Source: a virus
Direction: 5' to 3' (one strand)
IMG/VR virus record: IMGVR_UViG_3300034060_000588
Location: 18,962-82,961 of that record
DNA: 64,000 bases
The notes below the pieces were generated by a model. The model did not search any database. It saw only the letters and a program-made list of their open reading frames with translations, and was not told the DNA's origin. Below, one piece after another: positions 48,610 to 54,882 of this stretch (position 1 is its first letter; each line of letters begins with the position of its first letter). The position numbers and the translations under genes were made by a program.

Positions 48610-48774
48610 ATGGATAAGGATGTCAAAAAGATAAAAAATTTAAAGATCGCTGTTGAAGTTCACGAAGTCTTGAAAAAGTATTGTGACAAGCGGGGAATAA
48701 AAATGTATAGGTTTTTGGAAAACTTAATACTAGAAAAATGTAAAGAAAAGAAGGATATTTACGGCGAAGATTAA
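48610..48774 (+). CDS. Small ribbon-helix-helix DNA-binding protein (54 aa)
   Basis: The start is ATG 48610; an upstream TTG at 48577 in frame would add FFSTFFLP-like residues encoded by the repeat region and is less likely. The pattern is that of an RHH/CopG repressor: strand KNLKIAVEVHEVL, helix KYCDKRGIK, then MYRFLENLILEKCKE. Such dimers bind DNA with the beta ribbon and often repress their own gene. It is isolated on the plus strand between minus-strand tail genes and its stop codon interlocks (TTAA) with that of the gp15-like gene. Confidence 0.65.
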   Translation: MDKDVKKIKNLKIAVEVHEVLKKYCDKRGIKMYRFLENLILEKCKEKKDIYGED

Positions 48775-49805
48775 AGTAATTTTTGTTGGAAAATAATTTG
48801 AGCACTATCTGTCGTAACATTTTTTACTGTAATAATTTTTATTACGTCATTTGTATTAACTTGTATTTCAGAAAGATTTGTTCCGTAAAAATCGTCATTG
48901 ATATAAACAGTGTAATCATTCGTGTTAATTGTATTTGATAAAAATAAATCCGCAATATATTCTATTGTTAATGTTTTTTCTGTTTCGGTTGTTGAGAAGT
49001 TAAACACCAACTCTGATGGTTTATTATCACGTCTTTTTTTACTTCGTTTTGTACTTGCAGTATCTGTCTCATATATTTGAAAGATTCTACTTACCGCTGG
49101 TTGTACCTCAAATTCGTCTTCATCTATTAAAAAACCCATCATTGTAAATTCATATTTTTGTATATAGAATTTTCTTTTTTCTAAATCCACAACAGACTCA
49201 TCAGTATTACCATCAAATTTTATTGGGATATAATGACCCTTAATCATTTGATACGACTGTAAAGAAGAAAACTTTGTAAGAACAATCTGATTAAATTTAT
49301 TTAATTCTCGCATTCTATTACAAATTATTGCAACAGTAAATTTAATATCAACAGGTACTGGTTGTGGTATTTTATAAATGTCCATACCGTGTCTTTGACC
49401 GTCCCAAGTTGGTACTCTAGCGTAAAAATATAACCTCCTATTTGGTATGTTATAAATTATTGCCGGGTTATTACCGTATTTAACTTCCGGATTACGAATA
49501 ACCGTAATAAAAGGGGGTTCTATATTCTTGTCTATATTTTGAAAATTCCAGGTTTCAACAAACTGCGACCAGTTTTGAGTTGTAACTAAAATATCAACCA
49601 TAGGCACAGTAGTACCCTCAACAACAGTTTTTAATTCGTCACGAACAAAATCTAAAAAACCCCTATCTAAATCAGCATGTAAAATTGATTTAGGTAAATA
49701 CGTACCATCTTCAGCGATCATATCTGCCAATTCTTCCCGTCTAGGAAATAAAGTTTTACTTCTAGTAAGTGGTATATCTTTTTTAATTTTTTTCGGTAAA
49801 CTCAT
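48771..49805 (-). CDS. Putative tail completion / sheath stabiliser protein, gp15-like
   Basis: The protein has 344 aa. Residues about 205-260 contain GHYIPIKFDG, then DLEKRKFYIQKYEFTMMGFL and DEDEFEVQPA. This resembles the T4 gp15 region where a 'P-I/F-K' strand, a paired-Arg segment and an 'E-W/F-S/T-x-x-x-x-G-W/F' strand are followed by an acidic PP/P turn. gp15 caps the tail and joins it to the neck. T4 gp15 has 272 aa. The C-terminal 80 residues after a basic STKRSKKRRDN linker form an extra beta domain. It is in an operon after the gp14-like gene, as expected. Moderate confidence. Confidence 0.5.
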   Translation of the reverse strand: MSLPKKIKKDIPLTRSKTLFPRREELADMIAEDGTYLPKSILHADLDRGFLDFVRDELKTVVEGTTVPMVDILVTTQNWSQFVETWNFQNIDKNIEPPFITVIRNPEVKYGNNPAIIYNIPNRRLYFYARVPTWDGQRHGMDIYKIPQPVPVDIKFTVAIICNRMRELNKFNQIVLTKFSSLQSYQMIKGHYIPIKFDGNTDESVVDLEKRKFYIQKYEFTMMGFLIDEDEFEVQPAVSRIFQIYETDTASTKRSKKRRDNKPSELVFNFSTTETEKTLTIEYIADLFLSNTINTNDYTVYINDDFYGTNLSEIQVNTNDVIKIITVKNVTTDSAQIIFQQKLL

Positions 49806-52176: not shown

Positions 52177-52569
52177 ATGAATAGTAGAAGTCAAACCAAA
52201 ATTAGAAAAATACAACAAATAAATTTGTTAGCCGAAGAACGATATTTAAAAACCAAAGGGTTGTTATATGAAGGACCCCAAGAAGACGTTTTAAAATGTT
52301 TTACAGATAATGGTGTTGAAGAAAGTTTAATACCAGATTCTTGTAACCCACAAGGGGTTGGACAAAAATTTGATATTACAGCTTGTGCTGCGGCATTACC
52401 AGGTGTAATTACTAGTGTTCCGGAGGATAAACAAGAAGCGTTAAAAACGTGTCTAATGAATTTAGTTACAATGAATGTTGATTTTGGTGATATCCAAAAC
52501 ACAATAAACAAAGGTATTAAAATGGGTACAGATATTCTTAAAGGAACTGGTATTGGTATTAAATTTTAA
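52177..52569 (+). CDS. Hypothetical protein with (I/L)xE N-terminal segment, 130 aa
   Basis: The family is unrecognised. Residues 1-21 form a basic helix, IRKIQQINLLAEERYLKTKG, followed by LLYEGPQED; L-A-E and L-Y-E both fit the T4-type prohead protease rule. The mature part would be small, with four Cys (KCFTD, DSCNP, TACAA, KTCLM) and a hydrophobic Gly-rich C-terminus (GIKMGTDILKGTGIGIKF) that resembles a membrane-active peptide. It forms a single-gene unit with its own box and terminator. A capsid-internal or ejected protein is possible but unproven. Confidence 0.45.
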   Translation: MNSRSQTKIRKIQQINLLAEERYLKTKGLLYEGPQEDVLKCFTDNGVEESLIPDSCNPQGVGQKFDITACAAALPGVITSVPEDKQEALKTCLMNLVTMNVDFGDIQNTINKGIKMGTDILKGTGIGIKF

Positions 52570-52593
52570 TAAAACATTTAAAATATTAAAACA

Positions 52594-52618
52594 CCCCTTC
52601 TAACCGGAGGGGTTTTTT
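52594..52618 (+). terminator. Rho-independent terminator after the 130-aa gene
   Basis: A 7-bp stem (CCCCTTC at 52594-52600 with GGAGGGG at 52606-52612, one wobble, loop 5 nt) is followed by TTTTTT on the plus strand. Confidence 0.85.
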
Positions 52619-52629
52619 ATTTTATATTA

Positions 52630-52636
52630 TATTTAT
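52630..52636 (+). promoter_or_regulatory. TATTTAT box upstream of the peptidase-SOD fusion
   Basis: Plus-strand TATATTTATAGAATATG, only 5 nt before ATG. Being right after a terminator, the gene must have its own promoter here, which supports the box being a promoter element. Confidence 0.5.
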
Positions 52637-52641
52637 AGAAT

Positions 52642-53724
52642 ATGGACGTTTCTATAAAATGTAATAAATGTGATTTTGATAACAAGGATTTAGATCTTTA
52701 TAAAAGATTTATTAATTTCTTAAATAAGAATTACCCAGTTAAAAAGAAAGTTGAGGTAATTTTTTCTGGTGAAAGAATTGGTGATATGACAACCGGATCT
52801 AGAACGGATAATAACGAATTGAGAATCCTAACAAAAGGACGAATGAATCGTGACATTATGAGAACACTAGCCCACGAATGGGTTCACGAGTGGCAAATGT
52901 CAACAAAGGGTATGGAAAAAGGACCAAACATTGGTGGACACAGTGAAGATGAGGCAAACGCTGAAGCCGGATCTGTTATTAAAAAATTTGAGGAAAAACA
53001 CCCACATAAGGAAAAAACAATCTACGAATCTTTAACAAATAAAATTAATCTAATTAATGAACAATTAATTTTAGAAGAAAAGAAAACCATTAGGAAAGAA
53101 TTTTTAATGGAAATGAAAAAAATAGGTATTGAAAAATTACCTTATTCTTATTCGGCACTAAAACAGTTTGTTGATCCGGAAACAATGGATATTCACTATA
53201 ATAAACATTACAAGGGGTATGTTAAAAAACTGAATGATGCTTTATCAAAAAAGAAATATAAAGATGTTGAATTGGAAGAAATTATTCAGTCTATCAGTAA
53301 GTACGACACAAAAATAAGAAACAACGCAGGTGGTGCTTTTAATCACGCCTTATTTTGGAAAATGTTGTCACCAAAAAAACAACTACCAAAAGGAGAAATT
53401 CTTGAGAAACTTACCAAACAATATGGTAATATAAAAAAAATGAAGGACGAGTTTAACCAAGTTGCCACAGATAGGTTTGGTTCTGGTTGGGTTTGGCTTG
53501 TACTTACAAAAACAAATAGGTTAAAAATTATGTCAACACCAAACCAAGATAACCCACTTATGAATATCATAGACGGTGGTGGTTATCCATTACTGGGACT
53601 TGATTTATGGGAACACGCCTATTATTTAAAATATCAAAACAAAAGAGATCAATATATAAAAAATTTCTGGAATCACGTAAACTGGGAATTTGTAAATGAA
53701 TTGTATTTGAATAGAACTAAATAA
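52642..53724 (+). CDS. Metallopeptidase-superoxide dismutase (Fe/Mn family) fusion protein
   Basis: The protein has 360 aa and two domains. Residues 1-120: a small zinc peptidase-like domain with LAHEWVHEW (H78-E79-x-x-H82) and a downstream E-D-E-x-x-x-E (102-108) that could give the third ligand. Residues 126-160: helical linker with KINLINEQLILEE. Residues 165-357: a complete Fe/Mn superoxide dismutase starting LPYSYSALKQF; metal ligands H185 (DIHYNKHY), H235 (NNAGGAFNHALFW), D321 and H325 (LGLDLWEHAYYLKYQNKR) are all present. N301-Q302-D303 in the C-terminal half is the MnSOD-type glutamine. It would dismutate superoxide, possibly from inside the virion. It is followed 24 nt later by the gp13-like gene. 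Domain calls are strong; the purpose is inferred. Confidence 0.85.
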   Translation: MDVSIKCNKCDFDNKDLDLYKRFINFLNKNYPVKKKVEVIFSGERIGDMTTGSRTDNNELRILTKGRMNRDIMRTLAHEWVHEWQMSTKGMEKGPNIGGHSEDEANAEAGSVIKKFEEKHPHKEKTIYESLTNKINLINEQLILEEKKTIRKEFLMEMKKIGIEKLPYSYSALKQFVDPETMDIHYNKHYKGYVKKLNDALSKKKYKDVELEEIIQSISKYDTKIRNNAGGAFNHALFWKMLSPKKQLPKGEILEKLTKQYGNIKKMKDEFNQVATDRFGSGWVWLVLTKTNRLKIMSTPNQDNPLMNIIDGGGYPLLGLDLWEHAYYLKYQNKRDQYIKNFWNHVNWEFVNELYLNRTK

Positions 53725-53729
53725 TTGGA

Positions 53730-53736
53730 TATTTAT
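53730..53736 (+). promoter_or_regulatory. TATTTAT box upstream of the gp13-like gene
   Basis: Plus-strand GATATTTATAAAGAAAAAAC, 12 nt before ATG 53749, filling the 24-nt gap after the SOD stop codon. Confidence 0.45.
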
Positions 53737-53748
53737 AAAGAAAAAACT

Positions 53749-54882
53749 ATGTCTATAATTTCTGAACCCGAAAGAACAAATTTGTTCACAAAAGTACGTC
53801 ATCTACTTGGCGCACCGCTTAGATCCGTTGAATTAGAAGACGAACAAATGGATACATTACTTGAGTTCTCAATTGATGAATATTCACAATATGTCCAGGA
53901 TTGGTTAATAGAATCACAATGGACTTCGTTATATAATTTGAATATTGAAACACAATCGGTAGCAAAGGCGTTTATTACAAAAAGTTTAGATTACGAAACT
54001 CGTTATACTTACGCTTACTCTAAAATTGTTGGACTACAAGCTGGCGGAGAATGGGAACTTAAAAAAGATTATATCCAGTTAGTACCTAACCAACAAATTT
54101 ATGAAATCCCCGCAAATAGAGAAATTAATGAGTTATTGTGGTTTAGTCCACCAACATTAAATAACACTATGTTTGATCCGTGGTCATTCGGTTCACTAGG
54201 TTATGGTGGAGGCCTTGGCGGTGGTGGAGGTCTAGCACAAATGGGTGGTAATATGGCCGGGTCGTATTTTATGACACCAGCGTTTGATATGCTGTTAAGA
54301 ATGCAAGAAATTAACATTCAAAGAAGAATTATTGCCGGTGATTTAACATATAGAATTACCGCACTTCCTGGGGGCAAAAAAGCAATACACTTAATGAACA
54401 CGCCTGGTGGTAAGTTTGATTTTGGTAACGGAACACTAACCAAGGGTAAGGTATGGTATTGGTATTACGACACCACTAATGGTGGTAAAGACGATTGTTT
54501 AAAACAAAATCCAGATATCATTACATTACCGTCTGACGTACCATTTGATAAAATGAATTGGGACGAATTAAATAACCCAGCACAGGTTTGGGTTAGAAGA
54601 TGGTTTGTTGCATACTGTAAAGAAACTTTATCTAGAGTTCGTGGTAAGTTTAGTGGCAATCTAAAAACTGGTGACGGTGGTGATTTAACTATGGATTATC
54701 AGTCTTTAGGTACTGAAGCAAAAGATGAAAAAACAAAATTAATTGATGAATTAATTGGTTCAGAAGGTAGACTCACAAGATTAAAACCGGAAAAAGTTAT
54801 GGAAAGAGAAGCGTTAATCGCAGAAAATCTCAATAAACAGTTGAAATTTAGAGCGATGCCTAGACAAATATATGTTATTTAA
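53749..54882 (+). CDS. Putative neck protein, gp13-like
   Basis: The start is ATG 53749 (377 aa); an in-frame TTG at 53725 would place coding sequence across the TATTTAT box. The protein has an N-terminal helical region (VRHLLGAPLRSVELEDEQMD), a central Gly-rich loop GYGGGLGGGGGLAQMGG (about 160-176 of this form), and a C-terminal helical part with WVRRWFVAYCKETLSRVRGK and GTEAKDEKTKLIDELIGS. T4-like gp13 neck proteins have this order: helical N-terminus, Gly-rich excursion next to D-P-W, and a long C-terminal helix pair that contacts the portal. It would act with gp14 in closing the filled head. Confidence 0.6.
   Translation: MSIISEPERTNLFTKVRHLLGAPLRSVELEDEQMDTLLEFSIDEYSQYVQDWLIESQWTSLYNLNIETQSVAKAFITKSLDYETRYTYAYSKIVGLQAGGEWELKKDYIQLVPNQQIYEIPANREINELLWFSPPTLNNTMFDPWSFGSLGYGGGLGGGGGLAQMGGNMAGSYFMTPAFDMLLRMQEINIQRRIIAGDLTYRITALPGGKKAIHLMNTPGGKFDFGNGTLTKGKVWYWYYDTTNGGKDDCLKQNPDIITLPSDVPFDKMNWDELNNPAQVWVRRWFVAYCKETLSRVRGKFSGNLKTGDGGDLTMDYQSLGTEAKDEKTKLIDELIGSEGRLTRLKPEKVMEREALIAENLNKQLKFRAMPRQIYVI

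What the first reader, a model, noticed from the sequence alone, without database searches (positions are those of the whole stretch)
52642..53724. Phage-encoded metallopeptidase fused to a complete superoxide dismutase
One uninterrupted 360-codon frame joins a small HExxH domain (H78, E79, H82) to an Fe/Mn SOD with all four metal ligands (H185, H235, D321, H325) and the Mn-type Gln302. I know of no described phage protein with this architecture. It stands directly upstream of a gp13-like neck gene, in a cluster of head-neck genes, not among metabolic genes. A virion-carried or late-expressed SOD could blunt an oxidative burst on infection; the peptidase could release it or act on the envelope.
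Basis: partly seen in the sequence, partly recalled or inferred. Interest (0 to 1): 0.85.

Follow-up and report, generated by a model that had tools for sequence, protein, structure and literature searches.

The report
Capsid-packaged peptidase–superoxide dismutase polyprotein (predicted)
A widespread family of uncultured freshwater T4-like jumbo phages makes one protein that joins a small zinc-peptidase-type domain to a complete superoxide dismutase (often plus a swappable nuclease-type domain), with what look like the phage's own capsid-protease cut sites at the joints, so it is probably packed into the virus head and injected into the bacterium as a detoxifying and counter-defence kit.

Summary
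In detail: 52642-53724 is one 360-codon frame joining an HExxH minizincin domain to an intact Mn-type Fe/Mn SOD. It is not an assembly error. IMG/VR holds hundreds of relatives (246 and 376 stretches in two scans). All 80 best hits of the first scan span the whole fusion, and in 70 distinct sequences every catalytic and metal residue is invariant. Both halves are under strong purifying selection.

In the whole protein only three [LI]-x-E triads are conserved, all in a 20-residue linker (P1 = E140, E146, E157). L/I-x-E is the T4 gp21 prohead-protease site. Relatives encode a gp21-type (S77) protease and a gp23-type capsid protein with LINE|A at the expected site. Cutting at E157|M158 leaves a canonical 203-residue SOD; 'EFLME' matches the T4 capsid-targeting leader 'EFIAE'. 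In 35 of 67 distinct sequences a further module is fused after the SOD, usually again behind L/I-x-E; one is PD-(D/E)XK-like, and the tree needs at least 11 payload changes.

Best reading: a head-internal, ejected polyprotein matured by the prohead protease. Packaging, cleavage and SOD activity remain inferred.

The parts
52642..53724 (+). peptidase-SOD fusion ORF, 360 aa
   Evidence: 80/80 best relatives full length
52642..53031 (+). minizincin domain, residues 1-130
   Evidence: AF2 model pLDDT 84; BFVD matches to IrrE N-terminal-like/SprT-like phage proteins; weak Pfam hits to M91, SprT-like, M78, DUF4344
52873..52887 (+). HEWVH (HExxH) zinc motif, residues 78-82
   Evidence: invariant H78/E79/H82 in 70/70 sequences
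52945..52953 (+). E102-D-E104, candidate third zinc ligand (inferred)
   Evidence: both Glu invariant 70/70
53032..53127 (+). linker, residues 131-162, predicted helix of lower confidence, holding the candidate cleavage/targeting cassette
53053..53061 (+). candidate prohead-protease site I-N-E140|Q
   Evidence: [LI]xE in 28/29 clusters, middle residue variable
53071..53079 (+). candidate prohead-protease site L-E-E146|K
   Evidence: [LI]xE in 27/29 clusters
53104..53112 (+). candidate prohead-protease site L-M-E157|M, within 'KEFLME' like the T4 leader 'QEFIAE'
   Evidence: [LI]xE in 29/29 clusters; T4 ipII/ipIII N-termini
53113..53721 (+). Fe/Mn superoxide dismutase, residues 158-360
   Evidence: Pfam, PDB; ligands and second-sphere residues 70/70
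52177..52569 (+). upstream 130-aa ORF with a leader-like N-terminus (INLLAE...GLLYE|G)
   Evidence: function unknown
52593..52613 (+). terminator-like hairpin separating the fusion from the upstream gene
52630..52637 (+). TATTTATA 12 nt before the fusion start, candidate late-promoter element
   Evidence: exact octamer upstream of 30/81 relatives' fusions, always at offset -11/-12
53749..54882 (+). neck / head-tail adaptor gene (ORF from TTG 53725)
   Evidence: weak PHROG 211, E 1e-9; 20-31 nt downstream of the fusion in 71/77 loci

Best explanation
The gene encodes a head-internal (ejection-type) polyprotein of a T4-like jumbo phage. The precursor is recruited into the prohead core through a leader-like helix between its two domains. 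During head maturation the phage's gp21-type (S77) prohead protease cuts after the Glu of L/I-x-E sites in that linker (E140, E146, E157). This frees the M78/SprT-like minizincin and a normal 203-residue Mn-type SOD, which stay in the head and enter the host with the DNA. There the SOD removes superoxide produced on infection, and the zincin acts on a host or phage protein. In relatives a third, exchangeable domain rides along behind another such cassette; one kind is a PD-(D/E)XK-like domain. Shown here: the fusion, its conservation, the linker triads, the protease and capsid-protein homologues, the payload changes. Inferred: packaging, cleavage, injection, enzyme activity, benefit.
For: Only three [LI]xE triads in the whole fusion are conserved in at least half of 29 clusters, and all three lie in the linker with variable P2 (28/29, 27/29, 29/29). 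T4 gp21 cuts after L/I-x-E, and T4 internal proteins are targeted by removable leaders and ejected (PMC9026906). Four relatives, including both of about 300 kb, encode S77 proteases (E about 1e-23) and gp23-type capsid proteins with 'S(F/H)LINE|A' where T4 gp23 has 'SFLTE|A' at E65/A66. Linker 'KEFLME|M' resembles T4 ipII/ipIII 'QEFIAE|A' and the stand-alone relative of the peptidase domain in Synechococcus phage B23, 'MNYKQFLRE|S'. E157|M158 leaves a canonical-length SOD. C-terminal modules begin behind L/I-x-E in nearly all extended forms examined. The CD module also occurs as neighbouring stand-alone genes whose leader 'MKIIITE|NQSDKIN' recurs at the fused junction 'NIITE|NQSDKIN' (L166). 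In the 304-kb relative, near-identical leaders ending in L/I-x-E sit on otherwise different proteins; leader motif in 46/285 N-termini versus 9/285 at residues 61-88 and 12/238 in Bacteroidota ORFs (Fisher 1e-7 and 4e-5).
Against: No proteomics: neither packaging nor cleavage has been seen. The cassette is internal, whereas known T4 targeting leaders are terminal. The plain N-terminal [LI]xE rate is also raised in Bacteroidota ORFs (1.65-fold versus 2.02-fold), so only the fuller leader motif discriminates. The window's own contig carries no S77 or gp23 match (fragment of 82,961 bases). Only 2 of 41 window ORFs carry the leader motif. P1' residues Q, K and M differ from the A/S seen at the T4 sites looked at. 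E140 is Q in 4 of 70 sequences. One extended form (L063) has V-x-E at the first C-terminal site.
Confidence: 0.62

Rival explanations
1. The fusion works uncut in the infected cell as a late, non-virion bifunctional enzyme; the linker is only a conserved inter-domain helix.
For: The linker is modelled as one helix (residues 131-160). Other phages carry stand-alone SODs among host-takeover genes, e.g. next to clpS/ibpB in Callisto and near topoisomerase genes in Vibrio phage 2.275.O.
Against: A plain spacer need not keep L/I and E at P3/P1 while P2 drifts, three times, and nowhere else in the protein. Leader-like cassettes also recur at the junctions to otherwise unrelated C-terminal modules.
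Confidence: 0.17
2. The zincin domain cuts the polyprotein itself, as proposed for the metallopeptidase domains of phage polyvalent proteins.
For: Iyer et al. [quoted passage not shown] Every intact HExxH domain found among the best relatives is joined to the SOD.
Against: The conserved triads match the prohead-protease specificity. A stand-alone relative of the peptidase exists in cyanophages with no fused partner. Stand-alone CD proteins bear the same kind of site without any zincin.
Confidence: 0.13
3. SOD is also made separately from an internal start codon (M156/M158), so the fusion is partly a two-product gene.
For: M158 is invariant (70/70). The window has AGGAAAG before M156. T4 genes 17 and 21 are annotated with internal starts.
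Against: The Shine-Dalgarno-like stretch is not kept in relatives and M156 is often replaced. The invariant E157 and L/I155 are not explained.
Confidence: 0.06
4. Assembly join, frameshift artefact or decayed gene.
For: None found.
Against: Same fusion in hundreds of contigs from many metagenomes, low dN/dS, invariant active sites.
Confidence: 0.01

Closest known systems
T4 internal head proteins (IPI-III, Alt) with capsid-targeting leader and gp21 processing
   Same: L/I-x-E sites, leader-like EF[LI]xE segment, gp21-type protease and gp23-type capsid protein in relatives; proposed packaging and ejection
   Different: cassette lies between two enzyme domains; cargo is a SOD plus a minizincin plus changing modules; no T4 internal protein is a SOD
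Polyvalent proteins of phages and conjugative elements (Iyer et al. 2017, PMC5512222)
   Same: multidomain, zincin-like peptidase as the common domain, variable effector partners, proposed delivery with DNA
   Different: 'superoxide' does not occur in that paper; conserved prohead-protease-type sites suggest cutting by the virion protease; short (360-743 aa)
Virion-packaged Cu/Zn SOD of chlorovirus PBCV-1 (A245R; review PMC7019647)
   Same: virus SOD expressed late and packaged, associated with lower superoxide on infection
   Different: unrelated SOD family (Cu/Zn), eukaryotic virus, not fused
Stand-alone Fe/Mn SODs of jumbo phages (PA5oct/Callisto group, Vibrio phage 2.275.O)
   Same: Fe/Mn SOD in a large tailed phage
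   Different: about 26% identical, no peptidase domain, not beside neck genes; here the SOD is closest to Bacteroidota SODs at up to 55% identity
M78 (ImmA/IrrE/PprI) and SprT-like minizincins
   Same: HExxH helix plus downstream Glu helix; fold matches in BFVD
   Different: below every Pfam cut-off; PDB matches only weak (best E 0.03; M61, YbeY, PprI among them); substrate unknown

Membership tests
Fe/Mn superoxide dismutase | both Pfam domains over cut-off | tested here: met
   134.5 and 81.5 bits against cut-offs 20.9 and 27
Fe/Mn superoxide dismutase | four metal ligands and second-sphere residues | tested here: met
   H185, H235, D321, H325, H189, Y193, W283, Q302, W323, E324 invariant in 70/70
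Fe/Mn superoxide dismutase | enzyme activity with Mn or Fe | not testable with these tools
   needs purified protein
M78/SprT-like metallopeptidase | HExxH plus downstream Glu ligand | tested here: met
   H78/E79/H82 and E102/E104 invariant; which Glu binds zinc is not known
M78/SprT-like metallopeptidase | profile match over curated cut-off | tested here: not met
   best Pfam hits 12-18.5 bits, under cut-offs of 22-30 bits; hence 'minizincin of unassigned family'
M78/SprT-like metallopeptidase | fold | tested here: met
   BFVD IrrE N-terminal-like protein TM 0.58/0.77, 27% identity; PDB matches weak
T4-type internal (ejection) head protein | gp21-type protease and gp23-type capsid protein in the phage | tested here: met
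   in 4 relatives; not on the window's own fragment
T4-type internal (ejection) head protein | L/I-x-E cleavage motif next to a targeting leader | tested here: met
   three conserved triads in the linker only; leader is internal rather than N-terminal
T4-type internal (ejection) head protein | present, cut and ejected from the mature head | not testable with these tools
   needs virion proteomics
Phage polyvalent protein | two or more effector domains with a zincin hub, variable partners | tested here: met
   constant zincin+SOD core with at least four C-terminal payload types
Phage polyvalent protein | zincin belongs to one of the published polyvalent clades | not tested
   published clade alignments not held here

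The most novel reading that the evidence does not exclude
These jumbo phages use a general packaging code: short interchangeable leader cassettes with twin L/I-x-E sites, placed at N-termini of dozens of proteins and between the domains of fusions. It would load a large cargo of enzymes into the head, here a cleavable peptidase-SOD-nuclease set that detoxifies and disarms the host at the moment of DNA entry.
Probability: 0.4. Interest if true: 0.87.

Novelty: new variant of a known kind. Interest (0 to 1): 0.72.

Why it matters
If right, an antioxidant enzyme is delivered by a bacteriophage particle itself, which would link phage infection to an oxidative response that must be quenched within the first minutes. 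It would extend the T4 internal-protein principle to cleavable polyproteins, and it gives a sequence rule (conserved L/I-x-E between domains or after a leader) for predicting which jumbo-phage proteins are packaged and injected. That rule is directly testable by virion proteomics.

Tried and rejected
Assembly artefact: rejected. Fusion to the downstream neck gene in long relatives: suspected when about 700-aa ORFs appeared, rejected because the neck gene follows separately and the extension is another module. Internal start for a separate SOD: upstream Shine-Dalgarno-like sequence not conserved. Peptidase domain in bacterial genomes: 592 pattern matches, no relative. PADLOC defence models: none. 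Pfam and PHROGs for the C-terminal modules: nothing convincing. Plain N-terminal [LI]xE rate as evidence for leaders: too unspecific, since Bacteroidota ORFs also show enrichment. First alignment of all loci was disturbed by untrimmed C-terminal extensions and was redone on trimmed sequences. Stand-alone CB module in six large relatives: none found beyond the fusion.

Full report
OBSERVATION. The window is bases 18962-82961 of an 82,961-base viral record. Residues 163-358 are a Fe/Mn SOD by Pfam and by solved structures, nearest S. aureus-type Mn/Fe SODs at 1e-59. Residues 1-130 have no Pfam or named PHROG family. An AlphaFold2 model on 31 relatives (pLDDT 84) resembles phage IrrE N-terminal-like (M78) and SprT-like minizincins; PDB matches are weak and mixed (M61, YbeY, PprI).

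NOT AN ARTEFACT. A scan of IMG/VR gave 246 relatives; the best 80 all match over essentially the whole 360 residues at 69-94% identity. A scan with the peptidase half alone gave 376; every intact one among the best 80 also has the SOD. In 70 distinct sequences the HExxH residues, E102/E104, the SOD metal ligands and second-sphere residues never vary. dN/dS is low in both halves. In six large relatives SOD occurs once and only as this fusion. The peptidase half was not found in one-genome-per-species bacterial and archaeal contigs. The SOD's closest bacterial relatives are Bacteroidota, up to 55% identity, which fits, but does not prove, a Bacteroidota host.

MODULAR ARCHITECTURE. Among 67 distinct complete forms, 32 end after the SOD as in the window; the rest carry a further module: CB (17), CC (8), CD (5), E (4) or one other. 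On the tree of the peptidase-SOD core the payload changes at least 11 times. CB's model matches the PD-(D/E)XK N-terminal domains of the methylation-dependent restriction enzymes Eco15I and NhoI (probability up to 1.00 but E only 3e-3), so a nuclease-type fold is likely but not proven. CC contains 'GQDFDV...YFIQVKP', which by eye also looks like a PD-(D/E)XK core (untested). CD also occurs as stand-alone genes flanking the fusion (L041, L042, L044, L166).

THE LINKER. I asked where [LI]-x-E is conserved in the fusion, because T4 gp21 cuts after L/I-x-E (PMC9026906). Of all positions only three pass 50% of 29 clusters: residue 140 (28/29), 146 (27/29) and 157 (29/29). All are in the linker, all with a variable middle residue, while the rest of the protein, including the much more conserved SOD, has none. 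Cutting after E157 leaves M158-K360, exactly a normal SOD. The extended relatives repeat the pattern: their third module usually starts behind LNE/LKE/LSE/LTE/ITE, often followed by a second site about eight residues on. In L166 the junction 'IITENQSDKIN' equals the N-terminal leader 'MKIIITENQSDKIN' of neighbouring stand-alone CD proteins.

THE PROTEASE AND ITS OTHER SUBSTRATES. Relatives carry a gp21-type S77 protease with the T4-like 'ELNHP' and 'SSRG.GSL' segments, and a gp23-type capsid protein whose N-terminus reads SFLINE|A or SHLINE|A where T4 gp23 reads SFLTE|A at E65/A66 (the T4 cut position is from general knowledge). T4 ipII and ipIII begin MKTYQEFIAE|A; the linker reads KTIRKEFLME|M; the stand-alone peptidase relative in Synechococcus phage B23 begins MNYKQFLRE|S, although that of S-SRM01 has no such start. 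In the 304-kb relative about 50 ORFs begin with such leaders, in two recurrent families (MKKVIRLTESDLTRIVKRVINE| and MKIIITE|SQ) on otherwise different proteins. The fuller leader motif is enriched against internal positions and against bacterial ORFs; the bare triad rate is not a clean discriminator.

MECHANISM. Best supported: a head-internal polyprotein, targeted through the linker cassette, cut by the prohead protease, ejected with DNA. Shown: fusion, conservation, linker triads, protease and capsid-protein homologues, payload changes. Inferred: packaging, cutting, ejection, SOD activity, benefit. Precedent for a virion-packaged SOD that lowers superoxide is PBCV-1 (PMC7019647). Precedent for injected multidomain proteins with a zincin hub is the polyvalent protein class (PMC5512222), whose paper does not mention superoxide. 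Rivals are an uncut late enzyme, zincin autoproteolysis and an internal start; each is listed with its test.

NOVELTY. The parts are known kinds (Fe/Mn SOD, minizincin, T4-type internal protein, polyvalent protein). Their combination, the internal cassettes and the exchangeable third domain were not found in any annotated phage record searched or in the papers searched. I rate it a new variant of a known kind.

Noticed in passing
L180-L194 (304-kb relative, G001): About 50 of 355 ORFs begin with leader sequences ending in L/I-x-E, in two recurrent families ('MKKVIRLTESDLTRIVKRVINE' and 'MKIIITESQ'), on otherwise different proteins. A similar body occurs with different leaders (48611-49135 versus 72090-72572). 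Possibly a large packaged proteome.
   Followed up: partly
window 52630-52637 and 53730-53737; G001: TATTTATA stands about 12 nt before the fusion start and near the neck gene start. It is found in the 60 nt upstream of 9/42 window ORFs and 47/325 G001 ORFs, more often than its reverse complement TATAAATA (0/42 and 19/325). Candidate late-promoter element.
   Followed up: partly
L041, L042, L044, L166: Tandem arrays of about 150-aa stand-alone 'CD' proteins flank the fusion, several with a two-site leader (MKIIITE|NQYKLIKE|N). Function unknown.
   Followed up: partly
L151, L153, L154, L168: A further C-terminal module of about 370 aa after the SOD, with no family assigned.
   Followed up: no
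L178:2836-3210 (Synechococcus phage B23 gp332): Stand-alone 124-aa relative of the peptidase domain with a T4-like leader MNYKQFLRE|S, annotated only as hypothetical.
   Followed up: partly
window 41228-42187 (-): ORF with N-terminus MLHKKIVKGIIDEMLVEQ resembling the leader-bearing 299-aa protein at G001 214321-215220 (MNYSVLTRQIIKE|MVNEVEEKKYGVKYYAFDWDDN); both contain a D-W-D-D-N motif.
   Followed up: no
'phages' collection hits H1-H9: Several records labelled as phages (e.g. OR850395, OR844989) give strong matches to ordinary bacterial SODs and look like host contamination.
   Followed up: no
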